Origin: Nevskiaceae bacterium
GTDB lineage: Bacteria > Pseudomonadota > Gammaproteobacteria > Steroidobacterales > Steroidobacteraceae
DNA length: 37,526 nt
Assembly: GCA_018883185.1 (NCBI GenBank)
Contig: VEQP01000026.1
Coordinates: forward strand, 1 to 37,526
Reading direction: 5' to 3'
The first letter of the stretch is position 1; the number at the start of each line of letters is the position of its first letter. The position numbers and the translations under genes are program-made. The notes under the pieces are model-generated. The model did no database searches and was not told where the DNA came from. It saw nothing but the letters and a program-made list of their open reading frames with translations. Shown here one piece after another: positions 6,184 through 28,165 of the stretch.

Positions 6184-6519
6184 ATGGCCATCGACAAGAA
6201 CCGTCCCACCTACGCCGTCGAAGCGATCCCGTCCGACATCACCAACAGCGTGTTTCTCGGCAATCCTGCCGTCGACAACCTGCTGTCCTGCGTGATCGCC
6301 ATGAATGCCGAAATGTGGGCCACCAAGCGCCGCATGAAGGTGCTCGAATCTTTGCTCGCTAAAAAAGGCATCTCGCAAGAGATGATCGAAGGCTACGTGC
6401 CCACTGCGGCGGAAACTGCCGAATGGGAAAAGGAGCGCGATCGCTTCATTGAACTCGCGATGGGTCCGCTCGCCAACGATGGCTTCCGTTCCATCGGCAC
6501 TGGCTTTCCGAAGCGCTGA
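6184..6519 (+). CDS. Small helical protein A, paired with methyltransferase A
   Basis: I do not recognise a named family. The product is 111 residues, soluble, with no signal peptide. The start is clear: AGGAGG at 6171-6176, seven bases before the ATG. A central helical stretch (about residues 28-62, NPAVDNLL to ESLLAKKG) is followed by IEGYVP and a charged helix with ERDRFIEL. The same pattern of D, E, R-x-R, E-x-L, G, a Y/F-x-P step and a charged helix recurs in the small proteins at 10395 and 26794. All three sit directly beside a methyltransferase of one family. Here the methyltransferase starts 24 bases downstream, so the two are co-transcribed. A role as an obligate partner, stabiliser or substrate adaptor of the methyltransferase is inferred from this repeated pairing. 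Confidence 0.85.
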   Translation: MAIDKNRPTYAVEAIPSDITNSVFLGNPAVDNLLSCVIAMNAEMWATKRRMKVLESLLAKKGISQEMIEGYVPTAAETAEWEKERDRFIELAMGPLANDGFRSIGTGFPKR

Positions 6520-6543
6520 AGGCGCTCACTCCGGAGGTGATTC

Positions 6544-7746
6544 ATGATCGGTCGTCGTGAACTGTTTGGCGCCACCGCTGGCGCCTTGGTGATGGCCCAG
6601 ACGCTGAAGGCCGATGCCGCCGCAGCGGCGGAGAAACTCAAGCCCTACACGGCCGCACCGAAAGGCTCATACCTTCCGCGTGGCACCGACGGGCGCTTGG
6701 CCCGACTCGCGACTCTCGATCTCGAGAGTCACCAAGATTTCACGCTCGGCTTTCGCTTGATGCATAGCAAGGCGCTGCGCGCCGCATCGGCCGCGGCCTT
6801 CGAGCGAGTGCTGGAGCGCGAAGGCATCGACCCGCTGACGCCGCTTACCGGCGAACAGGTTCGCCAGCTCGTCGAAACGGAGCCCGGCATCAACATTGCC
6901 TCGCGCGCCTGGCTCGCCAACCAGCAGGTCACGTGGAAGACCCTACGCGATCACTTCCATGCCAACGCGGACGCCTACCTTTCAGAAATGGAAGCGGCCG
7001 ACAAATCCGGTCCCGGCACGCTGGAACTTGCGCCGAGTCTCGACATACCAACCTACGCAAGGCACGAGATCCACATTCAGCCGGGTGGTTATGTCGGTGA
7101 CCCGTTCGCCGGCCACATCTACCACTACGGCACCAACAGCTTCTACATCAGCGTCATCGGCCACAACGAACAGGACCAGGTGCACAAAGGCTCAGCGGCG
7201 CGTCTGCCGCTGCCGGAAGACGGCAAGGTCAAGCGCATCCTCGATATGGGCTGCGGTATTGGTCAGATGTCGGTCGCGCTCAAGGAGCGTTTCCCGGACG
7301 CCGAAGTCTGGGGCATCGACGTTGGCGGTCCGATGGTGCGCTACGCACACATGCGCGCTCGGCGCCTTGGTGTCGAAGTCAACTTCGCGCAGCGGCTGGC
7401 CGAACTCAGCGGCTTCCCGGACAACTACTTCGATCTGGTCACCAGCTACATCATGCATCACGAGTTGCCAGGCGAGATCACCAAGAAGGTGATCGACGAA
7501 GCGCGGCGCGTGACGCGCCCGGGTGGCGTCTACTACCCGATCGACTTCAACTCGGGCGGCACCAAAATGCCTGCGCGCATGATGTACAGCCGCTGGTACG
7601 ACCACCGCTGGAATAACGAAGTGTGGAGCTTCGAGTACCACGCCTTGAACTTCACCAATGAAATCGGCGAGCGCGGTTTCAACGTTGTGAAGAACGCGAA
7701 GCCTGCCCTGCCCGGGTTCGGCGTGCGGCACAGCATCAAGGTGTGA
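6544..7746 (+). CDS. Class I SAM-dependent methyltransferase A with Tat-like leader
   Basis: 400 residues, started by an ATG with a near-perfect GGAGGTGA site. The N-terminus (GRRELFG, then a hydrophobic, alanine-rich stretch to about residue 28) looks like a twin-arginine export signal, which is most unusual for a SAM enzyme. A helical region follows to about residue 155. Then comes a segment shared with the two paralogues in this window: GPGTLEL, HIQPGGY (177-183), and YHYGTNSF (193-200). The Rossmann methyltransferase fold follows, with motif I LDMGCGIGQ (233-241), GIDVGG (257-262), the acidic FDLV segment near 297, and RVTRPGG near 322. The methyl acceptor is unknown. It is co-directional with small protein A upstream and the FMN-binding protein downstream. 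Whether the leader is functional is open; a start after it would lack a comparable ribosome site. Confidence 0.88.
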   Translation: MIGRRELFGATAGALVMAQTLKADAAAAAEKLKPYTAAPKGSYLPRGTDGRLARLATLDLESHQDFTLGFRLMHSKALRAASAAAFERVLEREGIDPLTPLTGEQVRQLVETEPGINIASRAWLANQQVTWKTLRDHFHANADAYLSEMEAADKSGPGTLELAPSLDIPTYARHEIHIQPGGYVGDPFAGHIYHYGTNSFYISVIGHNEQDQVHKGSAARLPLPEDGKVKRILDMGCGIGQMSVALKERFPDAEVWGIDVGGPMVRYAHMRARRLGVEVNFAQRLAELSGFPDNYFDLVTSYIMHHELPGEITKKVIDEARRVTRPGGVYYPIDFNSGGTKMPARMMYSRWYDHRWNNEVWSFEYHALNFTNEIGERGFNVVKNAKPALPGFGVRHSIKV

Positions 7747-7774
7747 CTGCGGCGCACCGCGCCGCGATGCCCTG

Positions 7775-8293
7775 ATGCATCATCGCCTTCTGCTGGTTCC
7801 GGCCATGGCCATCGTGGCGGCGCAGTACGCGCCCGCCTACGAGTTGCAAACCCTCGAAGAAGCGCAGCAACGTCTCTATCCGAACGCGAAACTGACGCCA
7901 TTCGAGTTCAAGCTCTCACCCGAGCAGTTCACGCAGCTCAAATTCGAATACAAGGTTCCGGCGTTCCGGCCGCTGTTTCGCGGCTGGAAAGTCGAAAGTG
8001 GTGGGTGGCTGTATATCGACCAGGTGTATGGTCTCAACGACATCGTCACCTATCTGGTCGCCGTCGGCGCCGACGGCAAATGCCGTGGCATAGAAGTGCT
8101 GACCTGTGCAGATGGTTATTGCGATCTGTATACGCCGCAGTGGCGTAATACCTTGGTCGGTCTGGAGCATGGGCGCTGGGATCCGACCCGAACCATACCC
8201 ATCGTGTCAGGTTCTACCCTGTCGGCGACGCACGTCGCGGAGGGGGTCAAGAAAATGCTCGCTGTCCACGCGCGTTACCGCCCGCAACCCTAG
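7775..8293 (+). CDS. Exported FMN-binding-domain protein, probable ApbE client
   Basis: 172 residues with a short signal peptide (about 1-21). The C-terminal third resembles the FMN_bind domain, in which ApbE attaches FMN through a phosphoester to a Thr or Ser. The segment VSGSTLSA (144-151) fits the flavinylation motif S-G-A-T-x-S with Ser in place of Ala, making T148 the predicted acceptor. Three cysteines (C103, C111, C116) are spread through the domain without a heme-binding CxxCH. It lies 28 bases after methyltransferase A and 10 bases before the FGE-like gene, in one rightward run. With apbE 1.7 kb away and a Tat-exported FAD protein at 12236, it could serve as the one-electron carrier of an envelope redox chain. 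The start codon lacks a clear ribosome site; an ATG at 7805 is possible. Confidence 0.8.
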   Translation: MHHRLLLVPAMAIVAAQYAPAYELQTLEEAQQRLYPNAKLTPFEFKLSPEQFTQLKFEYKVPAFRPLFRGWKVESGGWLYIDQVYGLNDIVTYLVAVGADGKCRGIEVLTCADGYCDLYTPQWRNTLVGLEHGRWDPTRTIPIVSGSTLSATHVAEGVKKMLAVHARYRPQP

Positions 8294-8303
8294 GTCCAAT
8301 CCC

Positions 8304-9308
8304 ATGCTGCAAACTCTTGCTCCGCTGACGGGGCTACTCGCCCTGGCAGCGTTCGCCCTGCCTGGCTCCGTGTCTGCGCAAGCAACACCCACGTCAGTAT
8401 CTTTGAAGGCCGGCAGTGAATTTCGCGATTGCGCCGACTGCCCGGCCATGGTGGTGATACCGCCCGGACGATTCGACATGGGTTTCGATGGCGGCGAAGA
8501 AGGCCGATACGAAGGCCCTGTGCGCAATATCACGATCAACTACGCCTATGCGGTCGGCAAGTACGAAGTCAGCAACGCGGAGTATCGTCGCTTCATCAAC
8601 GAGACGGGTCACGTCTCGGCGCGAGACTGCAACCTCCTGCGCGATGGCACCTACCGCGCCGAGCCCGGCACGAACTGGCAGGACCCCGGCTACCAGCGCC
8701 CCATCCGAGAAACTGAGCCCGTGGTGTGCATCAGTTGGAACGACGCCAAGGCATTCGTTGCCTGGCTTGCTCGCCGCACTGGCCAGCCTTATCGACTGCT
8801 GACAGAGGCTGAATGGGAGTATGTCGGGCGCGGCAACCGCGGTGGTCATCGCTTCGTATGGGGCGAGCGTCCGGCCGAGGCCTGCCGCGAGTCCAACGTT
8901 TTCGATGAGAGCGCCAAGCGCGCGCGGCCTGACCGACGCATCGACGCCGCACCCTGTGATGACGGTTATCCAGAGGTCGCACCAGTCGGCAGTCTTGCAG
9001 CCAACCCATTCGGCGTACACGACATTCTGGGCAACGTCTGGGAATGGGTCGAAGATTGTTATGTGATGCCCTTACCGCCGAGCGCACCGCGCGACGGTTC
9101 TGCTCAGCTTGCGGAGGGCTGCGATCGCCGCGGCTCACGCGGTGGATCTTGGCTGAGCAGTTTCTCCCGCCAGACACCGACGTTTCGGGGTCGCGATCCG
9201 GCAACACTCGTCAGTCAAATTTTCGGCTTGCGCGTCGCGCGTGACCTCAACGCTTCACGCCCGACAACAAGTACCACACCACGTGCACGGGTCCCGGCGT
9301 CGAAGTGA
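8304..9308 (+). CDS. Exported FGE/SUMF1-like protein lacking the catalytic cysteines
   Basis: 334 residues from the ATG at 8304, which gives a clean signal peptide (about 1-24). The body is the FGE-sulfatase (SUMF1) fold: RDCADCP, then VVIPPGRFDMG, VGKYEVSNAEY, EPVVCISWNDAKAF, YRLLTEAEWEY, HDILGNVWEWVEDC and a C-terminal FGLRVARDL. In true formylglycine-generating enzymes, copper-binding catalytic cysteines follow the RGGSW motif; here that stretch reads GGSWLSSFSRQ with none. I also see no sulfatase in the window. A structural or ligand-binding role, or a non-FGE reaction of this superfamily, is more likely than sulfatase activation. The last 62 bases overlap the convergent methyltransferase B gene and add about 18 residues absent from the paralogue at 25766. 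Confidence 0.87.
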   Translation: MLQTLAPLTGLLALAAFALPGSVSAQATPTSVSLKAGSEFRDCADCPAMVVIPPGRFDMGFDGGEEGRYEGPVRNITINYAYAVGKYEVSNAEYRRFINETGHVSARDCNLLRDGTYRAEPGTNWQDPGYQRPIRETEPVVCISWNDAKAFVAWLARRTGQPYRLLTEAEWEYVGRGNRGGHRFVWGERPAEACRESNVFDESAKRARPDRRIDAAPCDDGYPEVAPVGSLAANPFGVHDILGNVWEWVEDCYVMPLPPSAPRDGSAQLAEGCDRRGSRGGSWLSSFSRQTPTFRGRDPATLVSQIFGLRVARDLNASRPTTSTTPRARVPASK

Positions 9309-10398
9309 AGCGCGGCTCGGCATTACGATCGGCCTGACGCACGGCCGGCTGATAGCCTGAGGTGACTTCGGCAAAACCGGCGTCACGCACGGCCTGCGCG
9401 ATGTCGGCCTGCTGAGCGCCGATCCAAAACGGCTCGTTGTTATGCAGGGCTTCAAACAGCCCGCGGACCCGGTTCCATGCCGATGCCGTATCAAAACGCA
9501 GCGGCACCTCGAGATGCATCATCACGCCACCGGGTCGCAACAGGCGATGCGCCTCGCGCATGATGCGCGGCAACGCCTTGAACGAGGTCTCGTGCAACAC
9601 CGCTGAAGACACTACGAGATCGAATGACCCGTCCGCGAAATCGGTCGCCTCGGCGTTCTGTTGCGAGTAGTGGATCGACGCGCCGAGTGATGCAGAGCGG
9701 GCTCGCGCATAACGCAACAGTGCACCCCCGACGTCGATGCCGTGCACTTCAGCCTGCGGAAAGTACCCGGCGATCGCCGTAGTGCTTTGCCCCACGGTAC
9801 AGCCCATGTCCAAAATGCGTTGTGGCGTCGTTCCGGGGAATCGGTCGAAGTAGTGTTGTACTAACGTGTGTCCGCGGACATCGTTGAGTTCACCGCCATT
9901 CCGTCCCATGTGGTATAGCGCCGCAGCCTTGTCGAACACCGCACCCTGGCGCACATCACCCTCGCCGCGATCATCCGCGTAGCCACCTGGCATCAGGTGA
10001 ATATCGACGGTGCTCAAGTAGCGCGGCGGACGAAACTGCGGATCAGTGCGTACGGAGCCCCCCGCAGCCGGATCCTTAGCCCGCCGCTCGAGCTCGGGCA
10101 GTTGCCGATCGACGCACTCGCCGACGCTACGCCACATTTCCTCTTGTGCCGACACCGTCAGTTGCTGCCAGGTGCGGTAGGCACCGAGTCGCGCGAGGCT
10201 GCGCTCGAGCCCTCGATATTCTTCCTTGGCATCTCGGCCTTCAGCAGCCAGTTGCGGTGCCAGCTTGTCATCGACGAGCGCGCGCCACTTGGGCTCCAGT
10301 TGCCGCATCAAAAAATTCTTGAGTCCCACCACGTGAGCGAAGCGTGCCGCCTCGTCGTGGGTGGCTTCAGGCATCATCGCGTGTGGCGTGGCACTCAT
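9247..10398 (-). CDS. Class I SAM-dependent methyltransferase B
   Basis: 383 residues, no leader. Its start overlaps the stop of small protein B as ATGA, so the pair is translationally coupled. A helical N-terminal region (about 15-110) is followed by the family signature IHLMPGGY (133-140) and YHMG (162-165). The Rossmann fold has motif I LDMGCTVGQ (196-204), GIDVGG about 20 residues later, SFDLVVSSAVLHE and RLLRPGGV. The GGY region is more diverged and slightly longer than in methyltransferases A and C. It is third in a leftward operon after an MFS transporter and small protein B. The acceptor substrate is unknown; being downstream of a transporter, it may act on an imported compound. The 3' end overlaps the convergent FGE-like gene by 62 bases. 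Confidence 0.9.
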   Translation of the reverse strand: MSATPHAMMPEATHDEAARFAHVVGLKNFLMRQLEPKWRALVDDKLAPQLAAEGRDAKEEYRGLERSLARLGAYRTWQQLTVSAQEEMWRSVGECVDRQLPELERRAKDPAAGGSVRTDPQFRPPRYLSTVDIHLMPGGYADDRGEGDVRQGAVFDKAAALYHMGRNGGELNDVRGHTLVQHYFDRFPGTTPQRILDMGCTVGQSTTAIAGYFPQAEVHGIDVGGALLRYARARSASLGASIHYSQQNAEATDFADGSFDLVVSSAVLHETSFKALPRIMREAHRLLRPGGVMMHLEVPLRFDTASAWNRVRGLFEALHNNEPFWIGAQQADIAQAVRDAGFAEVTSGYQPAVRQADRNAEPRFTSTPGPVHVVWYLLSGVKR

Positions 10399-10745
10399 CG
10401 ATCGGTCTCCAGCAAGGTTTTCTGCACAGCAGGATCCTCAAGCAGTCGATCTAGCTCGTCCGACAGGGGCTTGAACACCCGGCCGATCATCGCCTGATCG
10501 TCGACCATGCGCTCGGCCAGCGCTGTCGCATCGGGTCGATAGGCCTCAACTTTGGCACGATCGAAACCACCTTCGGCCGCCAGCCGCTCATGCGTGTCGA
10601 GACGCGCGCGCAGCATGGCGATCTCGCTCGTCAACGCGGTGATCATGCCTAGCAAGCGCCCGACGTCCGCCTGGCCTGCGAAGAACGACGACCGCTTGCT
10701 TGGGTCGTCGCGAAATACCAATCCTTCAGGATCGAGTTCCGTCAT
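10395..10745 (-). CDS. Small helical protein B, coupled to methyltransferase B
   Basis: 116 residues, soluble, no signal peptide, not a recognised named family. It is the most diverged of three related small proteins in this window. It shares the central helix pattern (GRLLGMITALTSEIAMLRARL), an E-x-L followed by a glycine pair, and VEAYRPDA, then a charged helix and FKPL. It starts nine bases after the MFS transporter stop, and its own stop overlaps the methyltransferase start in an ATGA. That arrangement usually gives equal amounts of two proteins that bind each other. A partner role for the methyltransferase is inferred, not shown. Confidence 0.85.
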   Translation of the reverse strand: MTELDPEGLVFRDDPSKRSSFFAGQADVGRLLGMITALTSEIAMLRARLDTHERLAAEGGFDRAKVEAYRPDATALAERMVDDQAMIGRVFKPLSDELDRLLEDPAVQKTLLETDR

Positions 10746-10754
10746 CGGTAGTCT

Positions 10755-12164
10755 CTAGGCGCGCTGCGCGCTTTTGAGGATTTTCTCGTCGAGACGATAG
10801 AACCACAACGGGATCAGCGAAATCCCGAAATAGAAGCACGGCAAGAAGGCGGCACAGTAGCGGATGCCGTCTATGGCCTCGGTCGTTTGTACCGGCGCCT
10901 TCGACTGGAACCCGAACCAGGCATAGCCCAGACCAAGCAGCGTTGGCGCAAAACTCGAGGCTACTTTCTCGACGACACTGTACAGGCCAGAGAATACGCC
11001 CTCCCGTCGCAGACCGGTGCGCCGATAGTCGTATTCGATCGTGTCCGGCAACATCGACTGCCCGAGCAGCAGCAGTCCACCAGCGGCAAAACCTTTGAGC
11101 AGCGCACGCAACAAGAAAATGTAGATCGATTCCTGGGGGCTCGCCACCAACCACGTCAACGACATCAGACAGAACGCCGCTGTTGAGAGCATGTAGGCCG
11201 CACGCTTCTCGATCCTATTGGTGATCCAGGTCCACGTCGGTATCGACAGCGTCTGGCCGATGAAGCTCACGGCAGTGAAGTAGATCATCCACTCGCCCGG
11301 GTTTTCTTTTCCGAGCACATACTTGACGACGAAGATGCTCATGGCCGTCGATGTGAACAGGCCAAAGAGCTGGGTGAACTTGGTGCCGAGCAGCGCTGCA
11401 AACGGCTTGTTGGCAAAACCCGTGCGCAGCTGCTCAGCAAGCCCCACGCGCTGCGTCTCGCGCGCGTGCTGACGACCTCCGGCGGTACCAAAAAAAGTCA
11501 GCGCCATGAAGAAAAACACGAATACGCCGATGATCACGCCCATCTGCGCATAGCCCTGGGCATCGCCGCCCAGAATCTCGGCGAGGCGCTGAGTGGAAAT
11601 GCCGATCATCGTGCCGATACCGATGCAGAAAACGCGCACCGAAATCATTCGGGTGCGTTCCTTGTAGTCGTCGACGAGCTCCGAGGGCATCGCCATATAG
11701 GGCACATTGAAAATGGTGTAACCCGTACCCACGAGCGCAAGCGACAGCGTCACGAGCAGCAGCGACTGCGACACGGGAGTCAACGCGGCACTGAAGAACA
11801 CGGCAAACGCAAAACCGGAAATCACTCCGCCCAGAATGAGATAGGGACGGCGCCGACCCCAACGGGTGTGGGTCCGGTCGCTGATCAAGCCCATCAGCGG
11901 GTTGGCGATCCAATCCCAGATCTTGGCCGCGAACAGCACCAGCGACGCCGTAGCGATGGCCACGCCGAGCACGTCGGTCAGGTAATAAAGTTGCAGGGCG
12001 GCAAAACTGTTGAGCAGCGCGGACGCCCCCAAAGTGCCGATGCCCCAACCGATGTGTAGCCGATTAGGCGTCGCCGATACGGTCGCTGCTGGAGAACTCA
12101 AAACCCACCCCCCCGACAGGTTGAAAACGCAGTCGACGATACGCCATACCACAGGGCGGCGCAC
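10755..12164 (-). CDS. MFS transporter of the GPH (MelB-like) cation symporter family
   Basis: Up to 469 residues with about twelve hydrophobic helices. Between helices 2 and 3 is the GPH/MFS signature, here SDRTHTRWGRRRPYL, and the first helix has the family look (GWGIGTLGASALLNSFAAL). GPH members take up sugars, glucuronides and other organic acids with Na+ or H+; the substrate here is not predictable. The GTG at 12164 has GAGGA four bases upstream. A TTG at 12101, preceded by a G-rich run, would remove 21 residues that do not look like the family and may be the true start. The gene heads a leftward operon with small protein B and methyltransferase B, and diverges from the FAD flavoprotein at 12236. 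Confidence 0.9.
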   Translation of the reverse strand: MRRPVVWRIVDCVFNLSGGWVLSSPAATVSATPNRLHIGWGIGTLGASALLNSFAALQLYYLTDVLGVAIATASLVLFAAKIWDWIANPLMGLISDRTHTRWGRRRPYLILGGVISGFAFAVFFSAALTPVSQSLLLVTLSLALVGTGYTIFNVPYMAMPSELVDDYKERTRMISVRVFCIGIGTMIGISTQRLAEILGGDAQGYAQMGVIIGVFVFFFMALTFFGTAGGRQHARETQRVGLAEQLRTGFANKPFAALLGTKFTQLFGLFTSTAMSIFVVKYVLGKENPGEWMIYFTAVSFIGQTLSIPTWTWITNRIEKRAAYMLSTAAFCLMSLTWLVASPQESIYIFLLRALLKGFAAGGLLLLGQSMLPDTIEYDYRRTGLRREGVFSGLYSVVEKVASSFAPTLLGLGYAWFGFQSKAPVQTTEAIDGIRYCAAFLPCFYFGISLIPLWFYRLDEKILKSAQRA

Positions 12165-12235
12165 GGCTTCCTCGACGGTTCCGCCGAAGCGTGGCTCACA
12201 CTAGGATCGGTTGACCACACGGGGATCAGAACAAT

Positions 12236-13762
12236 ATGAGCACGCTCAGTAAACGCGACTTCATCGTAGGAGCCGGCGCAACGGTGGCGCTCGGTGTCAT
12301 GGGCAGCACAGCGCGGGCTGCCCGCCACACCACCTTCGACCTGATCGTCGTCGGCGGTGGCAATGCCGGCCTGCCAACCGCGATCTTTGCCGCCGAGCGC
12401 GGCGCCAAAGTCGCGATCGTCGAGGCAGCAGGCATCGTCGGCGGCACCCTGCACCTCTCGAGTGGCCAGATGAGCGCGGCGGGAACCAGGTTGCAGCGGC
12501 AGCGCGGCATCGTCGACAGCCCCGATCTGCACTACGCCGACGTCATGCGAATCAGCAAGAACACGGCGAACCCCGAAATCCTGCGCCTCGCCGTGAACGC
12601 CGCGGCGCCTGCATTCGACTGGTTGATGGACAGCGGCTTCAAACCGATCGATGCGCACCCGATCACTGGCACCACCCACGAGCCGTACAGCCAACCCCGA
12701 TACGTCTGGGGGCGTAATGGCGGGCGCGACATCCTCGAAGTGTTGAATCGACAACTGGCGCCTCACATTCAGTCGGGGCGCGTCACCATCCTCACCGGAC
12801 ATTCAGCCGTCGAACTCGTGCAGGCCCGGGGCTCAGGCGCCGTCACGGGTCTGGTCGTACGTGATGCCGATAATCGCAAAGTGACGCTGCAGGCTCGGCA
12901 GGTAGCGCTGACCAGCGGCGGTTACACCGCCAATCCGCAGATGTTCCTCAAGTACGAAGGCACGCGTACGCATACCCGTGCCACCTACCCGTTCAGCCAG
13001 GGCATTGGCCTCGATCTCGGCTTGGCTGCCGGCGGTTACATTCGCGGTGGCGAGCACCACACCCCGCTGTTTGGCGCTGTGCTTGCCGACGACCAATCAC
13101 CCACGGCCATGCGCGCCATGGCGCGGCACTTCCCGCCCGAGCGCCCCCCTTGGGAAATTATCGTCAATGCCAAAGGTCAAAGATTTCTACGCGAAGACAT
13201 TCCGAGCCACGATGCCTATGAAATGGCGCTGGCACGTCTGCCGGACGAGCGCTGCTGGTTCGTCTTCGACGAGAGCATCCGTCGGCAGGCGCCGCCGCTG
13301 TTGCGCGGCGGATTCTCCGGTCCTTGGACCGAAGCCGACACCGAGCAAGCCTTTGCTGGTGGCACTTACGGTTTTCATCGAGCCACGGACCTGAGCACCC
13401 TCGCAAAGCGCGCCGGAATCGATGAACAGGGCTTGATTGAGACGGTCGCAAACTACAACCGCGGGCGTGATGCCGGCAAGGATGCACTGGGCCGAACACA
13501 CTTACCGGCAGCGATCTCCACTGCCCCGTACTACGCAGTCACCATCAATAGTTGGAATCTGCTGAGCTATGCGGGCGTCGCTGTCGATGCGCAACTGCGC
13601 GTGATCCGGCGCGACGGCACGCCTATCCCGAATCTGTATGCGGCGGGCGAACTGCTTGGTATGGGAACGGTGATGGGCAACGGTATGCCAGGTGGTATGT
13701 CGGTGATGCCAGCCCTCTCGCTCGGTCGTCTGCTCGGCAAGGAATTGATCGCCTTCGCATGA
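12236..13762 (+). CDS. Tat-exported FAD_binding_2 flavoprotein (fumarate reductase/ketosteroid dehydrogenase-like)
   Basis: 508 residues. An N-terminal SKRDFIVGAGATVALGVMG with an R29-like cut region fits a Tat signal with Lys-Arg replacing the twin arginines. The FAD dinucleotide site VVGGGNAG lies at 38-45, and the family's second FAD motif near the C-terminus reads NLYAAGELLGMG and PGGMSVMPALSLGRLLG. This is the flavoprotein fold of soluble fumarate reductases, urocanate reductase and 3-ketosteroid dehydrogenases, which remove or add hydrogen across C-C bonds. Single-polypeptide versions often fuse this fold to an FMN_bind domain; here that domain is a separate gene at 7775, with apbE nearby. 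The stop overlaps the next start (ATGA), so it is coupled to the beta-propeller gene. Direction and substrate are unknown. Confidence 0.88.
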   Translation: MSTLSKRDFIVGAGATVALGVMGSTARAARHTTFDLIVVGGGNAGLPTAIFAAERGAKVAIVEAAGIVGGTLHLSSGQMSAAGTRLQRQRGIVDSPDLHYADVMRISKNTANPEILRLAVNAAAPAFDWLMDSGFKPIDAHPITGTTHEPYSQPRYVWGRNGGRDILEVLNRQLAPHIQSGRVTILTGHSAVELVQARGSGAVTGLVVRDADNRKVTLQARQVALTSGGYTANPQMFLKYEGTRTHTRATYPFSQGIGLDLGLAAGGYIRGGEHHTPLFGAVLADDQSPTAMRAMARHFPPERPPWEIIVNAKGQRFLREDIPSHDAYEMALARLPDERCWFVFDESIRRQAPPLLRGGFSGPWTEADTEQAFAGGTYGFHRATDLSTLAKRAGIDEQGLIETVANYNRGRDAGKDALGRTHLPAAISTAPYYAVTINSWNLLSYAGVAVDAQLRVIRRDGTPIPNLYAAGELLGMGTVMGNGMPGGMSVMPALSLGRLLGKELIAFA

Positions 13763-17673: not shown

Positions 17674-17755
17674 ACCGCACCTCGAACTTACAGGAGAAGC
17701 GTTGATCGTACCGGGGTTCGGCCTCGTGTAAAGTCGGTCCTTAAGGAGGGGGGTC

Positions 17756-18715: not shown

Positions 18716-18765
18716 CGAACACTCCCCGAATCACCACCCTGCGACACACCATCAAGGAAACACTC

Positions 18766-19290: not shown

Positions 19291-19425
19291 TCGCTCAGCC
19301 CGCCGGCGGGATGCGGCGCGCAAACCGGCGAACTGCGTCAGTTCATCGAGCGCATCGCCGACACGGTAGTAGGCGCAACGGTCGACTGCCCAGCCCCACT
19401 ATCTGTCGGTTGAACTCAGGTATGG

Positions 19426-20433: not shown

Positions 20434-20519
20434 CGCGACGCTCCGCGAAGCGACAGTAGCGTGGGTGACCGCGACCGCTCGCGAGCGACCATCCGTACGC
20501 GTCGATCGATTGCTGATGA

Positions 20520-21434
20520 TCACACCGGCGGGGAGCGCAGCGCACGCTCCGGATCGTCCAGCACGTCCGGATGCAACCTGCGGGTGAGTTCGAGGAACTC
20601 CGGCGGACACTCCGCCCAAGTCGCTGCCTTTGCGCCGTAGCCGCTATCGACCGTGTGACCCTTCAGAGCGCCCATCTGCATCCACGGGCGCCAACTCGCC
20701 AACGCCGTGTAGCCGTAGTTCGCCGCGACGGCCGGGCTGTTGCGTGCGAGATCTTCCGCGCGGGCCTGCCACGCCATCCATTCACGATAATAGATCGTCA
20801 TCGGGCCCGAACGATCTGGATAGACGCGCCCGTACTCGTTGGTACGGATAACGACGCCGTCGCCGACTGCCGTGGCCGGCTCGATGGAGCGCAGCAGATG
20901 GACTGACGAGCGCGGCACGAACTGCGTAGCGCCGCTGCCGCCCTGAGGCGGATCGAACTCCTCCCACTCATCCAGCGCCACTGCGAATCGCGCCTTCACC
21001 GGGCCGAAGCGATACCTCGGAACATTGACCCTGCGCCCCGTCCCCGGCATCTCGACCGTGTCGAGCAGATCACCGGTGGTCGGATGCACGTAGTGCGCGA
21101 CCTCAAGGATGGTCGCTTCGAAAACGTCTTCGCGCAGGCGCTCAAAGCGCTGCACCGCACCTGCGATCACACTGCATAGCGGCGTGATCTCGCCATCAAT
21201 GACTGCAGAGCGCTGCGAGCGCAGCCAGCCGTGCGCGATGCGCCCATCGATACGTCCGCGCGTACGAACGAACGCCTCGAGCAGCGCAGGTCCCCGAAGA
21301 CTTGCAGCGAGTGCGGTGGCCTGCTCTGTCGCGGACTCGCCTCGGGCAACCTCATCCCCCAGCACGGGCGCTGGGGTCAGCGCCGCAAGCCCTAGGCTTG
21401 CGGCGCCGCCGGTCAGCAGCGCTCGGCGCAGCAT
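20520..21434 (-). CDS. DUF1838 family protein 1, Tat-like leader
   Basis: 304 residues. The N-terminus LRRALLTGGAASLGLAALTP is a probable Tat signal. The family pattern is visible: RTRGRIDGRIAHGWL near 58-71, then ILEVAHYVHPTTGDLLDT, a P-x-Y-R-F-G-P step and, late in the protein, SWRPWMQMGALKGHTVD, which corresponds to the WM-x-MG-x-x-x-G-H segment in the two DUF1838 proteins at 23956 and 24894. DUF1838 has no established function. The start lies eight bases after the TonB receptor stop, so receptor and DUF1838 are co-transcribed, and the stop is near or overlaps the hydrolase start. This points to an envelope function linked to the receptor's substrate. Confidence 0.83.
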   Translation of the reverse strand: MLRRALLTGGAASLGLAALTPAPVLGDEVARGESATEQATALAASLRGPALLEAFVRTRGRIDGRIAHGWLRSQRSAVIDGEITPLCSVIAGAVQRFERLREDVFEATILEVAHYVHPTTGDLLDTVEMPGTGRRVNVPRYRFGPVKARFAVALDEWEEFDPPQGGSGATQFVPRSSVHLLRSIEPATAVGDGVVIRTNEYGRVYPDRSGPMTIYYREWMAWQARAEDLARNSPAVAANYGYTALASWRPWMQMGALKGHTVDSGYGAKAATWAECPPEFLELTRRLHPDVLDDPERALRSPPV

Positions 21435-21442
21435 GCGAAGGC

Positions 21443-23809
21443 TCAGAACCGGAACGTTGCCGTCACCCCGAACTGTCGCTTGTTTGGCAGCACCGCCTCG
21501 CAGGCGGCGAGCTGGAAGAAGAACGGGTCGGTTGCGCTGTCACTCTGGTAACGGCAGGCCTCGAGCGTGTCATCGTCGAACAGGTTGGTCACGAACGCTG
21601 TGACGTCCCACTTCTCCGCGCGCAGTCCACCCCGCAAGTTGGTGCGGAACTGCCCTGGCACATACGCGAAATTTGCGATGCTGTCGTAGCGCTTGCCGAT
21701 ATAGGTCATGTCGGCCCGTACAAACCAACTACGCGCGTCAGACAGTTTCCGGTCGTACTGCAAGTATGCGGCGCCGCTGAACGCAGGAACCAGCGGGTAC
21801 TGGAAGCCCTTCGCATTCGTCACGCCGAGAAAGCGCAGCGGGATAGTCTCATTGAGTGCCTTGGTGATCTCGGTGTCGGCATACGCGGCGCTGCCGCCCA
21901 CGGTCCAGCTCTCTCCGAGCCGCAGCGCGCCGTCGATCTCGATACCCTTGGTATTGCTGTCACCGGCTGAGAACGGCGACGCATTGAAGTTCTCACCCGC
22001 GGGTGCCGGCAGGTTCGTGATGACGCCGTCACCGTTCAGATCGATCTGCAGTGTGCGCACGCCCTGGCGGCCAACCCACTCAAGGTAGTAGATCGACGCG
22101 TTGAGGTACCAGCTGCCGTCATCCTCGCGATGCTTGATGCCGATCTCGTAGTTCTCGATCTCGGCTTCCGGTGCCGCCGGCACGAGACCATTGGCAAGAG
22201 CCACCGTCTGCTGCGCCGGCGTGAGCTGGAAGAACGTCGCATAGCCCAGCGTCGGCTGGTTGCCTTTGGCGTAGTTGACAAACAGGTTAGTCTCATCGTT
22301 CAACGAATAGCGGCCAAGGAAGCGGGGCAGCGTAGCCTTGGTCTCGACGCTGACCGGTAGCGCCGTACCAACGCCACTAGTCTGCTCGTCAATTTGTCTG
22401 CGGGCTTCCAGGCTCAACGACAGCCGGTCGGTCGCTTGGAAGCCTATGCTGCCAAATACCGAATCCGCCTTCGAGGCGCTGCGCAGCGGCAGCAGCGAGG
22501 CCGGGGCTGGCGTGGGCGCACCTGCGGTACCGAACAGTGCGCCATTGATGAACGCACCGATCGTGTCGAACGTCGTCTCCAAGCGTGCCACGCCGATCAT
22601 CCAGCTCAGGCGCTGCTCGGCCGGTGACGTCAGGCGAACTTCATACGTGTCCTGGGTCTGATCGTTCGTGAGATAAACTTGGTAGCGGTCCTCGGGCGCC
22701 AGCTCGAAGTCGCGCACCTGCTCGATATTTTGCTCCTGCGTGCTTGCAATCGCCGTGAGTGTATAGCCGCTGCCGAACGACCAGTCCGCCGAGATCGAGC
22801 CGAGCTCATGATCGAGTATGAGCTTGTGCTCATCGAGCGGAATCAGCGGCAGCGTCGAGGCCGGAAGCGTCGTGTTGATGCCGATCGGACCCTTCGGTGC
22901 CTTAAGCTCCCCGCAATAAACGCGGCGGGATTGCGGCAGCGTGAACCCCGCCGGCAATCCGGCCAGCGACCGCGTCTGATAGCCGGGGAACGGCCCGCAG
23001 TTGTGCTCGGTGTAGCGCGCGATCAGGGTGGTGGCGGCCGGACCGTCCTCGTCGTGCCGGTCGCTCCAGCGCAGCCGAATCGACAGGTCTTCCGTCGGGG
23101 TGAAGTTCAGGGTGCCAGCCACATAACGCTGGTCGGTCTCGCCGAGATTGCCGCCGAAGGCGTTGTCGTAGAAGCCGTCAAACTTTCGACCTTCCACGGC
23201 AATGCGGCCGGTGAGCTTGTCTTGCACGATCGGCCCTTCGATTGCCCCACTCAGCCGGTAGTCGCTGTCGGTGGCGCCCGTAACGCTTACCCGACCCTTG
23301 AGCTCGTTGCCCGGCGTGGTCGTCACGAGGCTGATCGCGCCGCCAAAAGTGGCACGGCCGAACAGGGCCGACTGGGGTCCCTTGATGATCTCCACGCGCG
23401 AGAGATCCTCGGTGCCGATACCCTGCGGATTGCCGACATACGGAACGCCATCGATGAATACAGTGACGAGGTCGCGCCGGTTGTCGCCGACGGGGGAGAT
23501 CTGCGTCATGCCGCGGATGGAGAAGTCGGCTGCCGAGCGTGATGACCCCTGGTTCATAGTCAGGCCGGGTGCGAACTTCGCGAGGTCCACCAGCGACTCC
23601 GCACCGCGCTCCTCGATCTGGTCCCCGGTGAAGGCCTGTATGGTCAGCGGGGCGTCCTGGATAGACTCCACGCGTTTGCGCGCTGTGACGACGATCTCGT
23701 CAAGCCCGCCAGCCTCAGCGGTCGCGTTCTGCGCGACGGCCCCGCCCGAGGCCGTGACGACTGCTACGCCGACCGCGGCCGCAATGACCCCTTTTGTGAT
23801 TGTTCTCAT
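21443..23809 (-). CDS. TonB-dependent outer-membrane receptor 3
   Basis: 788 residues with a signal peptide (1 to about 26), a TonB-box-like LDEIVVTARKR (36-46), a plug with VEIIKGPQSALFGRATFGGA and a barrel ending in VTATFRF. It is a diverged relative of the tandem pair at the window start; the loop DDDGPPAQ there corresponds to HDEDGPAA here. There is no STN domain. The ATG is preceded by GGGGAAA. It heads a leftward operon with a DUF1838 protein and an alpha/beta hydrolase and diverges from the DUF1838/FGE-like operon at 23885, so the two operons may be co-regulated from the short shared gap. Substrate unknown. Confidence 0.95.
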   Translation of the reverse strand: MRTITKGVIAAAVGVAVVTASGGAVAQNATAEAGGLDEIVVTARKRVESIQDAPLTIQAFTGDQIEERGAESLVDLAKFAPGLTMNQGSSRSAADFSIRGMTQISPVGDNRRDLVTVFIDGVPYVGNPQGIGTEDLSRVEIIKGPQSALFGRATFGGAISLVTTTPGNELKGRVSVTGATDSDYRLSGAIEGPIVQDKLTGRIAVEGRKFDGFYDNAFGGNLGETDQRYVAGTLNFTPTEDLSIRLRWSDRHDEDGPAATTLIARYTEHNCGPFPGYQTRSLAGLPAGFTLPQSRRVYCGELKAPKGPIGINTTLPASTLPLIPLDEHKLILDHELGSISADWSFGSGYTLTAIASTQEQNIEQVRDFELAPEDRYQVYLTNDQTQDTYEVRLTSPAEQRLSWMIGVARLETTFDTIGAFINGALFGTAGAPTPAPASLLPLRSASKADSVFGSIGFQATDRLSLSLEARRQIDEQTSGVGTALPVSVETKATLPRFLGRYSLNDETNLFVNYAKGNQPTLGYATFFQLTPAQQTVALANGLVPAAPEAEIENYEIGIKHREDDGSWYLNASIYYLEWVGRQGVRTLQIDLNGDGVITNLPAPAGENFNASPFSAGDSNTKGIEIDGALRLGESWTVGGSAAYADTEITKALNETIPLRFLGVTNAKGFQYPLVPAFSGAAYLQYDRKLSDARSWFVRADMTYIGKRYDSIANFAYVPGQFRTNLRGGLRAEKWDVTAFVTNLFDDDTLEACRYQSDSATDPFFFQLAACEAVLPNKRQFGVTATFRF

Positions 23810-23884
23810 ATTGATTTCCCCGTGTTTTAGAGCGCGTATTGCGCCAACCTCCCCTAAAAATTAGACCCATTTCGGAGGCCGTGC

Positions 23885-23955
23885 ATGCATTCTACGGATG
23901 GCGACAGGCGCATCATCTATGGCACGCGCGCCGGCTGTACGCGCAAAATCCAGCA

Positions 23956-23959
<4 letters not shown>
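23885..23959 (+). CDS. Possible 24-residue leader ORF coupled to DUF1838 gene
   Basis: A short ORF begins with ATG at 23885, six bases after an ideal GGAGG (23874-23878), the only strong ribosome site in this leader. It encodes 24 residues rich in Arg, Thr and Ile, and its TGA overlaps the ATG of the DUF1838 gene (ATGA at 23956-23959). The DUF1838 gene itself has no good ribosome site, so this ORF could deliver ribosomes by translational coupling. It could instead be chance. A GTG at 23881 in the DUF1838 frame is only two bases from the GGAGG and is a poorer start. Confidence 0.4.
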
Positions 23960-24893
<934 letters not shown>

Positions 24894-24897
<4 letters not shown>

Positions 24898-25763
24898 ACC
24901 GACGCGATCTGCTGCCCGCCATCATGGCCGGTGTAGCAACCGGCGGGGCGGGGATCGCAATGCCAAGTAATGCGCCTGCATCGGCGCGTCGCGTGCGGTC
25001 TCTGTCGCAATTCTTGGCGCTGGATCCCATCGAAAATTTCCGGCAGGCGATGCGCTTGCAGCGCAGTCTCGAAGACGCGGACGACATCCTGCATTGGTAC
25101 CACTTCATCATGGTGGCGGTGCCGCTTAACGCGACGCCAAAACCGGTGGTCCGGTGGGAAGGTATAGAGTTTTCCCGGCATCAAAAAATTGGTGATAACC
25201 GTTATCGGATGCACGGTCACAATCTATCGTTTCCGCGGGATCTCAAGAGCGGCGCATTTGTCGCCGAGGTGCGTAATCCAGTGACCGGCAAGGTTGTTGC
25301 CGTTCCGCCGATGGCGCTGACGCAGGACCCAGGCTTGGTCCGTTCGCCGTATGGCGTCATCACGCTCGACAAGCCGTCGTTGCCGCCGCGCCCCGATTAC
25401 AAAGTGCTCAGACGCGAAAACGATTTCGTCAAAGTAGATGGCATTCGTGTGCCGCCGGATACCTGGCCCGTGACGTTTCTCGAAATGGGTACTGAAGCGG
25501 CGCCCGCGGCGCTATTCGATGATCCCTCACAAAATTGGCTGCCGACTGAAGTATCTGGTGCCTATGTGTTCCCATGGCCTGCATGGATGCAAATGGGCGA
25601 TGCACCGGGTCATATGTTTGCCGCCTGGAGTGGCTGCAAACTGCGCTCCGTGGACGAGTTGCCTGAGGAATTTCGGCGGCGTGCGGCGCGCGACTTCCCG
25701 GAATTGTTGCGCGTCGATCGGCGGGCCTTCGAGCGCGCTGTTCCTGATCTCCATCCGGGGTGA
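24894..25763 (+). CDS. DUF1838 family protein 3, Tat leader
   Basis: 289 residues from an ATG that overlaps the previous stop (ATGA). NRRDLLPAIMAGVATGG is a good Tat signal. The body parallels the upstream DUF1838 protein: VRWEGIEFSRHQK, HNLSFPRDLKSGAF, VRNPVTGKVVAVPPM, then a D-x-W-P-V-T-F-L-E step and FPWPAWMQMGDAPGHMFAAWSG. The pair is a tandem duplication that has diverged. Adjacent placement with overlapping codons suggests equal expression and perhaps a heterodimer. Function unknown. A GTG overlapping this gene's stop, or the ATG six bases later, starts the FGE-like gene. Confidence 0.86.
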
Positions 25764-25765
25764 CG

Positions 25766-26731
25766 ATGCGTCCGCTCATCGTCCTCGTGTGTGCGGTGCT
25801 CTTCGGTGGAGCGGTCACCACCGAAAAGGCGGTTGCGGGTGGGCCTGCGAGTATTCGCGATTGCGCCGATTGTCCTGAACTTGTGCCGATCCCTGTCGGT
25901 GAGTTCGTGATGGGTGCGGACATCGAAGAGCCGCGACGGCTCGAACTGCCGGAGTTCTGGGCCACGCGCGAGCAACCCAAACATCGGGTGCGCATATCAC
26001 GTACGTTCGCCCTCGGAAAATATGAACTCACCCGGGGCGAGTTTGCCCGCTTCGCCGCAGAGACGGGTTATTCCCCCGCGCCCGGTTGCTGGCACTTTAT
26101 CGGCACGGAGTGGCTGTTCGATGAGTCGCGAAGTTGGCAGGACGCAAAGATCAGCGAGACGGATGCGCATCCCGTGACCTGCGTCAATTGGCATGATGCA
26201 TCCGCCTATCTCGAATGGTTGAGTCGGAAAACAGGTCAACGCTATCGCTTAGCGAGCGAAGCGGAATGGGAGTATGCGGTTCGAGCAGGAACAACTACCG
26301 CTTACTGGTTTGGCGATGATCCGGCGCGTATCTGCGAATTTGTAAATCTGGGCGATCTCGATACGCAAAATCGATTTCGCTGGCATGAGACAAAGATCAA
26401 GTACGACAAGATGAGCGACTGGAAGGGTCAGTCATGCCGCGATGGACATCCGACGCTGGCACCGGTCGCAGCGACAGTGGCAAACCCCTTCGGCCTGCAC
26501 GGCATGCTGGGTAATGCCAATGAATGGGTGGCGGACTGCTGGAACGACGATCATCGCAGTGCCGCAGGTGATCAGGCTGCGCGGCTGACCGGCGCCGATT
26601 GCGGAATGCGGGTGATGCGCGGCCAAGGATGGACGGCCGTTGCGGCCAGCACTCGAGCGGCTTTTCGTCTCAAGATGAACGCAACGGATCGTCGCTTCAC
26701 TTTCGGATTTCGTGTGGCACGAGATCTCTAG
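25766..26731 (+). CDS. Exported FGE/SUMF1-like protein 2 lacking catalytic cysteines
   Basis: 321 residues from the ATG at 25766 (GGGGTGA upstream; a GTG at 25760 overlapping the previous stop is the alternative). Signal peptide about 1-25. The FGE-sulfatase fold is shown by RDCADCPELVPIPVGEFVMG, LGKYELTRGEFARF, HPVTCVNWHDASAY, YRLASEAEWEYAVRAG, HGMLGNANEWVADCW and FGFRVARDL. The region matching the catalytic-cysteine segment of real FGEs reads MRGQGWTAVAAST, without cysteine, as in the paralogue at 8304. It is the third gene of an operon with two DUF1838 proteins. No sulfatase is present. A binding or assembly role for the DUF1838 proteins is a guess from context. Confidence 0.87.
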   Translation: MRPLIVLVCAVLFGGAVTTEKAVAGGPASIRDCADCPELVPIPVGEFVMGADIEEPRRLELPEFWATREQPKHRVRISRTFALGKYELTRGEFARFAAETGYSPAPGCWHFIGTEWLFDESRSWQDAKISETDAHPVTCVNWHDASAYLEWLSRKTGQRYRLASEAEWEYAVRAGTTTAYWFGDDPARICEFVNLGDLDTQNRFRWHETKIKYDKMSDWKGQSCRDGHPTLAPVAATVANPFGLHGMLGNANEWVADCWNDDHRSAAGDQAARLTGADCGMRVMRGQGWTAVAASTRAAFRLKMNATDRRFTFGFRVARDL

Positions 26732-26793
26732 TACGGCTCCGGCACGGAGAGCACTACGCGAATCTCAGCGATCGCAGCCGGCAAAGTCACCGC

Positions 26794-27102
26794 TTAGGGC
26801 TTAGGCGGAATACGACGTAGTTCTTTGAAAACGTCTTCTATGAAACGCGCACGTTCTCGTTTGAGCGCAGCAGCCTGCGCGGCATCGGGCTTGAACGACT
26901 CGATTGCCGCGCGGCTCAGTGTGCCTTGGGCCTCGAGCAGCGACTCCAGGGTGATGCGTCGTTCACGTTCGATCCACACTTGAGCAGCGAGCTCCACCAC
27001 CATGCGCACGGTGGCATCGAGCACCGGATCTTTGAGATAAACCGGGTTCTCGTCCGCAATGGGCGTGCCGCCCTCGGGTGTCTGCTGCGTGAGCTCAGAC
27101 AC
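26794..27102 (-). CDS. Small helical protein C, overlapping methyltransferase C
   Basis: 102 residues from the GTG at 27102; a TTG at 27111 would add three residues, and neither has a clear ribosome site. The gene overlaps the last codons of methyltransferase C, so translation is probably coupled. It aligns well with small protein A: DPVLDATVRMVVELAAQVW against NPAVDNLLSCVIAMNAEMW, then RRITLESLLEAQG against RRMKVLESLLAKKG, then IESFKPDAA and ERARFIED. No signal peptide or membrane segment. Here the small gene follows the methyltransferase, whereas it precedes it in pairs A and B; keeping the pair while swapping order supports a functional link. Confidence 0.82.
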   Translation of the reverse strand: MSELTQQTPEGGTPIADENPVYLKDPVLDATVRMVVELAAQVWIERERRITLESLLEAQGTLSRAAIESFKPDAAQAAALKRERARFIEDVFKELRRIPPKP

Positions 27103-28165
27103 GGGTCGCAAACCAATTAGTCATGTAGCCAGCGCCGCCTGATCGTTGTCCGAGCGGTGCCACAGCGACCTCAAAACCGTTGGCGGCGAGGATGGCATTC
27201 ATGTCGCAGTCGCAGAAGTCCTGCGAATACGGCTCACCGTTGTGACGCGCATCGAACCAGCGGTGATATCGCTGGTAGGGTGACTTGTCGCGCGTTCCGG
27301 TGAAATCGTAGATTGCAAAGATGCCCCCACGCCGCGTCACCCGCGCCGCCTCACGCACCGTTTCATGAATGATGCGCAGCGGTAGCTCGTGAAACACGAT
27401 GAACGCGAAGGTGATATCGAACTGCCCGTCGGCATATCCCGTCTTCTCAATCAAACGCTGCGCGAAGGTCACCTCGTCGCCTAGCATCACCGCGCGCCGA
27501 TGGGCAACGCGCAGCATCGGTGCCGAGTAGTCGATGCCAGTGACTTCAGCCGACGGAAACCGGCGGTGAAATGCAGTACTGCTCTGGCCGATGGAGCAGG
27601 CGAGATCGAGGACACGTTCGACCCGACCGTCGACCGGTGCCGGGACGCGCGCCACAAGCTTCGAGTGCAACTCGTCATGGTCGTTGTCGCCGCGGAAAAA
27701 GACCTTGGTGCCGTAGTGGTAGAGGTAGCCGGACAAGGCGTCCTTGTAGTACCCGCCCGGTTGCAGATGGAAATGCACGTTCACGTACGGCGGATGGACG
27801 AAGTTCGGATCAAGCTCCAGCCGGCCCGGCCCGCGGGTGTCGTAGCGCTCGAGTTCAGCGAGCAATGCAGCGCGCTGCGCCTCGAACGAGCGACGCAGCG
27901 CAAACCATTTCATCTCCTGCTGGGTGCGCGACAACCGATCGCGCAATCGACCGAGCGGCAACGAATGCACGTACTCGCGAATCTGCTCCACTTCGCCCCA
28001 GGGTTGCCCGCGGCGGGCCTGTTCGGCCAGTAGCGCCTCGTTCAACCGGTCCTCGAAATCCGCACCCTTGCCGAGAATGTATTCGCGGAAACCTTCGACG
28101 AAATCGAGGTAGGCGGCGTCCGCACGCTCGGCGAGCGCGGGGAGTGTTTCGGGCACTGCAGACAT
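27095..28165 (-). CDS. Class I SAM-dependent methyltransferase C
   Basis: 356 residues, no leader. A helical N-terminal domain (about 10-110) precedes the family signature GPGRLELDP, HFHLQPGGYY (131-140) and YHYGTKVFF (149-157). The Rossmann part has motif I LDLACSIGQ (186-194), GIDYSAPM, FDITFAFIVFHELP and RVTRRGGIFAIYDF. It is closer to methyltransferase A than to B; for example HELP and the YxxxYDF region correspond. It starts 14 bases after the FAD monooxygenase stop and overlaps small protein C, forming a three-gene leftward operon. A hydroxylase followed by a methyltransferase suggests O-methylation of a hydroxylated product, but no acceptor is identifiable. Confidence 0.9.
   Translation of the reverse strand: MSAVPETLPALAERADAAYLDFVEGFREYILGKGADFEDRLNEALLAEQARRGQPWGEVEQIREYVHSLPLGRLRDRLSRTQQEMKWFALRRSFEAQRAALLAELERYDTRGPGRLELDPNFVHPPYVNVHFHLQPGGYYKDALSGYLYHYGTKVFFRGDNDHDELHSKLVARVPAPVDGRVERVLDLACSIGQSSTAFHRRFPSAEVTGIDYSAPMLRVAHRRAVMLGDEVTFAQRLIEKTGYADGQFDITFAFIVFHELPLRIIHETVREAARVTRRGGIFAIYDFTGTRDKSPYQRYHRWFDARHNGEPYSQDFCDCDMNAILAANGFEVAVAPLGQRSGGAGYMTNWFATRV

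What the first reader, a model, noticed from the sequence alone, without database searches (positions are those of the whole stretch)
6184..28165. Three paralogous pairs of a small helical protein with a class I methyltransferase
Seen: genes at 6184/6544, 10395/9247 and 26794/27095 each combine a 102-116 residue soluble protein with a 356-400 residue methyltransferase. The small proteins share a pattern (D...E-x-W/R-x-R...E-x-L...G...E-x-Y/F-x-P-x-A...R-F-I) and are always the immediate neighbour, twice with overlapping codons, even though gene order is swapped in pair C. Inference: a two-component methyltransferase with an obligate small partner, comparable in principle to Trm112-dependent methyltransferases but unrelated in sequence. 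I know no described family that fits.
Basis: partly seen in the sequence, partly recalled or inferred. Interest (0 to 1): 0.75.

Follow-up and report, generated by a model that had tools for sequence, protein, structure and literature searches.

The report
Methyltransferases with a dedicated small partner
Some lake, sea and soil bacteria carry many copies of an uncharacterised methyl-transferring enzyme whose gene often sits beside the gene of an undescribed small helical protein that probably binds it, which suggests a widely copied two-part enzyme.

Summary
The three pairs are real, and they are a glimpse of something larger. The window's genome holds 16 small proteins (S) and 18 methyltransferases (M). 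Two MAGs titled Rhodospirillaceae hold 36 S/71 M and 25 S/47 M. S matches no Pfam or NCBIfam family convincingly and has no sequence relative of known structure; M has a UbiG/TylM1-like catalytic domain plus an unassigned helical N-terminus. In 98 related genomes, 45 have S and all 45 have M; copy numbers track (r 0.97). In two genomes searched whole, 51 of 61 S lie within 450 bp of an M (about 4% expected). S and M paralogues co-diverge inside single genomes (r 0.78 and 0.71). An AlphaFold2 model of pair A as one read-through chain has pTM 0.85; without a fixed S position it should stay near 0.70. I conclude that S is probably a dedicated subunit of M. 'Obligate' goes too far: 74 of 216 examined M lack an adjacent S (all 11 genomes tested behind such loci have S elsewhere, but 3 of 98 relatives have one M and no S). 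Neighbours point to diverse catabolic operons; the substrate is unknown. One M clade, including pair A, has a twin-arginine-like N-terminus. A second, reversed-order fold could not be run.

The parts
6184..6519 (+). sA, small helical protein of pair A (111 aa)
   Evidence: S profile hit
6544..7746 (+). mA, class I methyltransferase of pair A (400 aa) with twin-arginine-like N-terminus
   Evidence: Methyltransf_25 E 1.4e-20; N-terminus
10395..10745 (-). sB, small helical protein of pair B (116 aa)
9247..10398 (-). mB, class I methyltransferase of pair B (383 aa), overlaps sB by 4 bp
   Evidence: Methyltransf_25 E 1.6e-21
27095..28165 (-). mC, class I methyltransferase of pair C (356 aa)
   Evidence: Methyltransf_25 E 5.9e-18
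26794..27102 (-). sC, small helical protein of pair C (102 aa), overlaps mC by 8 bp

Best explanation
S (small protein) is a dedicated helical subunit of M, a two-domain SAM-dependent methyltransferase. M has a UbiG/TylM1-like Rossmann domain that should hold SAM and an all-helical N-terminal region of about 150 residues. S, two long helices joined by a short segment, is predicted to dock in a fixed place on M. Inferred: S completes or stabilises the helical, substrate-facing part of M and so sets activity or specificity. Because pairs sit in differing operons with oxidoreductases, decarboxylases, hydrolases and transporters, each pair probably methylates a different small molecule (most likely an aromatic or carboxylic intermediate) in its operon's pathway. 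Shown: linkage, co-occurrence, copy-number match, co-divergence. Predicted: the complex (pair A only). Inferred only: the role of S in catalysis, and the substrate.
For: Presence: among 98 related genomes S is in 45 and M in 48; all 45 S genomes have M, 3 have M only, 50 have neither; copy numbers r 0.97 in the 48 genomes, 0.95 in the genus (n 24), 0.90 in the genus after removing genome size. Linkage: an S-only scan of 369 genomes gave 19 S outside the window's genome, 15 adjacent to M on the same strand, 3 more within 1.2 kb on the same strand, 1 at 4.4 kb on the other strand; two genomes searched whole gave 51 of 61 S within 450 bp of M, 47 on the same strand, against about 4% expected. Translational coupling: 38 of 97 M-then-S pairs share the 4-bp overlap. 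On a tree of 216 M, S-adjacency changes 21 times against 55-68 in 20 label shuffles, and among M with S on one side only the side changes 9 times. Co-divergence inside one genome, where species history cannot confound: r 0.78 (23 pairs) and 0.71 (19 pairs), both P 0.0005; own genome r 0.45 (11 pairs), P 0.015. Complex: pair A read through as one chain folds with mean pLDDT 86.5 and pTM 0.85; an S of unknown position (error 20 A) would cap pTM at about 0.70, 0.73 with generous assumptions. Apart from S itself, no other neighbour cluster flanks more than 25 of 152 pairs on the same strand (a VOC-like protein).
Against: No M-S fusion was found. 74 of 216 M with enough flank lack an adjacent S, and three genomes have M without S, so M may work alone or share S. 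Residue covariation between S and M is not above the best of shuffled pairings (210 pairs, effective 109; 149 pairs). The fold is one model, of a single linked chain, with 12 paired rows; no coordinates or PAE were available, the replicate with reversed order was never accepted, and no cross-pair control was run. Co-divergence of neighbouring genes can arise from joint duplication without contact.
Confidence: 0.66

Rival explanations
1. S and M are merely co-inherited: they were duplicated as a block with their operons, and S acts separately, for instance as a regulator, chaperone or pathway scaffold, without being a subunit of M.
For: Operonic linkage and joint duplication alone could give the tree correlation. 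Orphan M are common. A few S stand without M: plasmid p1 of Novosphingobium sp. ES2-1 has an S beside a TonB receptor and no M found at E 1e-20; in G465 and G466 7 of 61 S are far from any listed M or on a contig without one, one of them a fragment.
Against: Other operon genes differ between pairs while S stays. The side on which S lies changes repeatedly while adjacency persists. The folded chain seems to fix S on M.
Confidence: 0.22
2. S is an antitoxin or inhibitor that keeps a toxic methyltransferase (M) in check, as in toxin-antitoxin pairs.
For: Small gene overlapping a larger enzyme gene, many copies per genome, scattered distribution.
Against: No match of 4 S to PADLOC models; the 3 window M match them only through the generic methyltransferase domain. 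Many M lack an adjacent S. Neighbours are catabolic enzymes and transporters. M's catalytic half is closest to small-molecule methyltransferases.
Confidence: 0.04
3. M is not a methyltransferase in function but a SAM-binding enzyme or sensor of another kind (for example a SAM-dependent decarboxylase or pericyclase), with S as its partner.
For: One M clade has a twin-arginine-like N-terminus suggesting export to a compartment that should lack SAM (the lack of SAM is recalled).
Against: In the 18 own-genome M the H-E after strand 4 and the acidic-loop D are invariant and the glycines of motif I nearly so; the closest folds listed are methyltransferases.
Confidence: 0.08

Closest known systems
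Trm112-dependent methyltransferases (Trm9, Trm11, Mtq2, Bud23, recalled; Haloferax Trm112-Hvo_0019, PDB 6f5z)
   Different: Trm112 is one shared zinc-binding activator of many enzymes acting on translation factors and RNA (recalled). S has no conserved cysteine, none of 47 S matches a Trm112 model at E 0.01, and S comes as many paralogues, roughly one for every one or two enzymes.
UbiG / TylM1 / geranyl-diphosphate C-methyltransferase group of small-molecule class I methyltransferases
   Different: Sequence identity 12-18% in those rows; these work without a separate helical subunit (recalled); M has an extra helical N-terminal region.
DnrK and MfnG O-methyltransferases (helical N-terminal domain before the catalytic one, recalled)
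   Same: In the aligned ranges one DnrK entry (5eeh) starts inside S (residue 23) and MfnG inside M's N-terminus (residue 167).
   Different: There the helices belong to the same chain. The range gives only end points, so this is a lead, not a demonstrated equivalence.

Membership tests
Class I SAM-dependent methyltransferase (M) | Methyltransferase domain with SAM motif I and an acidic residue after strand 2 | tested here: met
   Pfam Methyltransf_25 above cut-off in mA, mB, mC; motifs in the 18-sequence alignment
Class I SAM-dependent methyltransferase (M) | Rossmann-like fold shared with solved members | tested here: met
Class I SAM-dependent methyltransferase (M) | Methyl transfer from SAM to a substrate | not testable with these tools
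   needs an assay
Named NCBIfam methyltransferase equivalogs (UbiE, UbiG, BioC, CpaM, RquA) | score above the curated cut-off | tested here: not met
   best 54.5 bits against cut-off 180 (CpaM); all of the 25 best rows shown per protein are below their cut-offs
Trm112 activator | Match to the Trm112 family model | tested here: not met
   no such match at E 0.01 in 47 S scanned
Trm112 activator | Zinc-binding cysteines (recalled as defining) | tested here: not met
   39 of 47 S have no cysteine in the aligned region, 8 have one
Trm112 activator | Required for methyltransferase stability and SAM binding (recalled) | not testable with these tools
   needs co-expression and assay
PspB coiled-coil membrane protein | score above the curated family cut-off | tested here: inconclusive
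   3 of 47 S reach E 0.01 (best 2.6e-4) in NCBIfam, 1 of 47 (E 0.0038) in Pfam; bit scores and cut-offs were not shown; probably helix similarity
Toxin-antitoxin or defence pair | match of S to a known defence component | tested here: not met
   no PADLOC match at E 0.01 for 4 S

The most novel reading that the evidence does not exclude
S-M is an undescribed two-subunit enzyme platform that certain proteobacteria have multiplied to dozens of copies, spread over uptake and catabolic operons, giving each its own substrate-specific methylation (or other SAM) step; and in one clade of single origin the folded S-M complex is exported by the Tat system, S riding along on M's signal, which would put a SAM enzyme outside the cytoplasm.
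Probability: 0.15. Interest if true: 0.85.

Novelty: new variant of a known kind. Interest (0 to 1): 0.64.

Why it matters
A methyltransferase with a small partner is a known kind of thing, but here an unnamed small family is tied closely in number and place to an unnamed methyltransferase family that reaches 71 copies in a 3.5 Mb genome, very roughly 2% of its genes (my estimate). Such an expansion points to an unread part of the chemistry of environmental bacteria, and the pairs also occur on plasmids of cultured sphingomonads, so the question is directly testable.

Tried and rejected
Residue-level covariation: mean-field DCA on 149 pairs (effective 80; 5 shuffles) and on 210 pairs with a reduced alphabet (effective 109; 12 shuffles). 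The observed top scores lie above the mean of shuffled pairings but not above their maximum; rejected as evidence either way. Fusion search: no open frame matched both the S and the M profile in the set. A second small partner for orphan M: among same-strand neighbours under 200 aa the one that recurs beside orphan M from different families is cluster 59 (124-129 aa, 3 of 74); two other clusters (84, 85) recur only beside close relatives. Mixed alignments of fused, S-only and M-only rows were misaligned by MAFFT; paired rows plus M-only rows aligned properly in my test. Tat models: seven N-termini matched no TAT model above cut-off in NCBIfam or Pfam (best was formate_TAT at E 0.15 for one), so export rests on the motif alone. 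Papers: seven searches for this pair, its hosts, its neighbours or exported methyltransferases and one on Trm112; I saw listings with the starts of abstracts and opened no paper; nothing on an S-M pair appeared in them. The structural search covers residues 279-520; a known fold for S or for M's N-terminus is neither found nor excluded. A plain Foldseek search was never accepted.

Dropped before counts: identical domain sequences; S or M with under 1.5 kb of flank where stated; M covering too little of the profile (238 of 245 M examined in the latter); 18 of 152 pairs whose starts my gene caller did not place; S-M pairs with 30% or more gaps. In one search at most 21 candidates per genome were scored and the cut-off was 1e-20, so high M copy numbers are underestimates; the near 1:1 ratio is therefore approximate, and G465/G466 show about 2 M per S.

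Full report
What is there. The window (a whole contig, C64, of a 2.8 Mb, 90% complete assembly) contains the three pairs as described. A is sA-mA, 24 bp apart; B is sB-mB, overlapping by 4 bp; C is mC-sC, overlapping by 8 bp with the order swapped. The small proteins are homologous to each other and so are the methyltransferases.

The family in this genome. Profile searches over the window and 14 stretches fetched around the hits found 16 S and 18 M, plus one short protein with only a generic methyltransferase domain that I leave out; a later whole-genome search with a broader S model also gave 16 S. Twelve S are adjacent to an M on the same strand; one more has a single transporter-like gene between; two are 3.7 and 9 kb from the nearest M, on the other strand; one ends at a contig edge. 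Eleven M have an adjacent S and seven do not.

Where else. A scan of 84,980 species' genomes with the M motif IH[LI][QM]PGGY gave 323 relatives, of which the best 80 were kept; the titles are mostly MAGs named Gammaproteobacteria, Steroidobacteraceae, Rhodospirillaceae, Alphaproteobacteria or Halieaceae, some naming lakes or the sea. S is rare overall: 9 of 369 genomes of the class and 4 of 398 of the phylum, the window's own counted in both; candidates were capped, so these are lower bounds. Cultured sphingomonads carry both on plasmids: 9 plasmid records with S, 8 with M. Sphingomonas sp. JE1 pJE1 has 'class I SAM-dependent methyltransferase' directly followed by 'hypothetical protein', which is S.

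Co-occurrence. In the same 98 related genomes M occurs in 48 and S in 45. All 45 with S have M; G040, G047 and G059 have a single M and no S; 50 have neither. Copy numbers correlate at r 0.97 over the 48 genomes, 0.95 within the genus and 0.90 within the genus after removing genome size. Genomes are related, so the Fisher P of 9e-25 in that call overstates independence.

Linkage. Over all loci gathered, 133 of 142 distinct S with at least 1.5 kb on each side have an M adjacent on the same strand (97 with M upstream, 36 downstream). Many of these loci were fetched through M, so two less biased tests matter more. First, the S-only scan of the class: of 19 S outside the window's genome, 15 are adjacent on the same strand, 3 lie 1.0-1.2 kb away on the same strand, and 1 is 4.4 kb away on the other strand. 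Second, two genomes searched whole for both families: 51 of 61 S within 450 bp of an M, 47 on the same strand, against 3.5-4.4% expected by random placement. Where M precedes S, 49 of 97 pairs overlap and 38 share the 4-bp overlap; where S precedes M, 8 of 37 overlap (starts are from my own simple gene caller).

Orphans. On a FastTree tree of 216 M, 142 have an adjacent S and 74 do not. The trait changes 21 times, against 55-68 in 20 shuffles of the labels, so it follows descent; among M with S on one side only the side changes 9 times. All 11 genomes behind 14 loci chosen because they lacked S in reach hold 8 to 36 S elsewhere, but the three relatives named above have M and no S. So S is nearly universal at genome level but not at gene level. 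Whether orphan M share an S or work alone is open.

Co-divergence. Distances among S and among M correlate at r 0.76 over 149 pairs. Inside single genomes, where shared species history cannot produce it, r is 0.78 (23 pairs, G465), 0.71 (19 pairs, G466) and 0.45 (11 pairs, own genome), with P 0.0005, 0.0005 and 0.015. S and M thus diverged together, though joint duplication of neighbours would give this too.

Function. The neighbours of pairs and of orphan M vary: VOC-like protein, CaiB-type CoA-transferase, isochorismatase-like hydrolase, hydroxymethylglutaryl-CoA lyase, hydantoinase, UbiD-family decarboxylase, aldehyde dehydrogenase, arylmalonate-decarboxylase family, nitrilase family, TonB receptors and MFS transporters (the VOC, hydantoinase in MAGs, TonB and MFS names there are from sequence inspection or from plasmid annotation). 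The most economical reading is one methylation step in each of many catabolic or transformation pathways for imported aromatic or carboxylic compounds. Invariant residues in 18 M (His of HxxPGG, the His-Glu after strand 4, Glu of NNEPF) are candidates for catalysis, by inference.

Export. Of 238 M examined, 15 start with a twin-arginine pattern and an uncharged stretch of hydrophobicity above 1.5; lowering the cut-off to 1.3 or 1.0 gives 20, mA (1.44) among them. On the M tree the 19 that are present arise by a single change, so they form one clade or nearly so; 13 of the 19 have an adjacent S, in each case upstream of M. They come from at least three families of the order and from one MAG titled Alphaproteobacteria. 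No library TAT model matched above cut-off. If real, it is odd for a SAM enzyme.

Verdict. The scale of the expansion and the tight numerical coupling are the new facts.

Noticed in passing
window 6544-6640 and homologues (L029, L135, L153, L154, L157, L162-L165, L171, L172, L181, L186, L187, L213, L215, L218, L220): Twin-arginine-like N-termini on one clade of methyltransferases of apparently single origin, in several bacterial families; possible export of a SAM enzyme.
   Followed up: partly
G465 and G466 (MAGs titled Rhodospirillaceae behind L116/L149 and L117/L151): 71 and 47 methyltransferases of this one family in 3.5 and 2.9 Mb genomes, an extreme paralogue expansion.
   Followed up: partly
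window 20520-21434, 23956-24897, 24894-25763: Three DUF1838 proteins in one window, the first and third with twin-arginine-like starts; a DUF1838 cluster also lies near pairs in other loci (cluster 28).
   Followed up: no
window 8289-9308 and 25760-26731: Two FGE-sulfatase domain proteins (PF03781) with signal-peptide-like starts, one beside pair B and one beside pair C.
   Followed up: no
window 5239-6117 and 7775-8293: Pair A is flanked by an ApbE-like protein (recalled from sequence) and an FMN_bind-like protein just under the Pfam cut-off; relatives of the latter lie near pairs in other loci (cluster 42).
   Followed up: no
window 3-2063 and 2257-4764: Two tandem TonB-dependent-receptor-like proteins at the contig start that look paralogous (by inspection).
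   Followed up: no
L033, L073-L082 (L078 with two M), L085, L089, L098: A recurring S-M-S arrangement in which a methyltransferase is flanked by two small proteins.
   Followed up: partly
L290 11959-12333 (Novosphingobium sp. ES2-1 plasmid p1): An S gene next to a TonB-dependent receptor with no methyltransferase of this family found on the plasmid at E 1e-20.
   Followed up: no
L080, L091 and L120 record titles: MAG titles Klebsiella pneumoniae and Rheinheimera tuosuensis on contigs whose methyltransferase is closely like those of the other MAGs here; probably mislabelled records.
   Followed up: no
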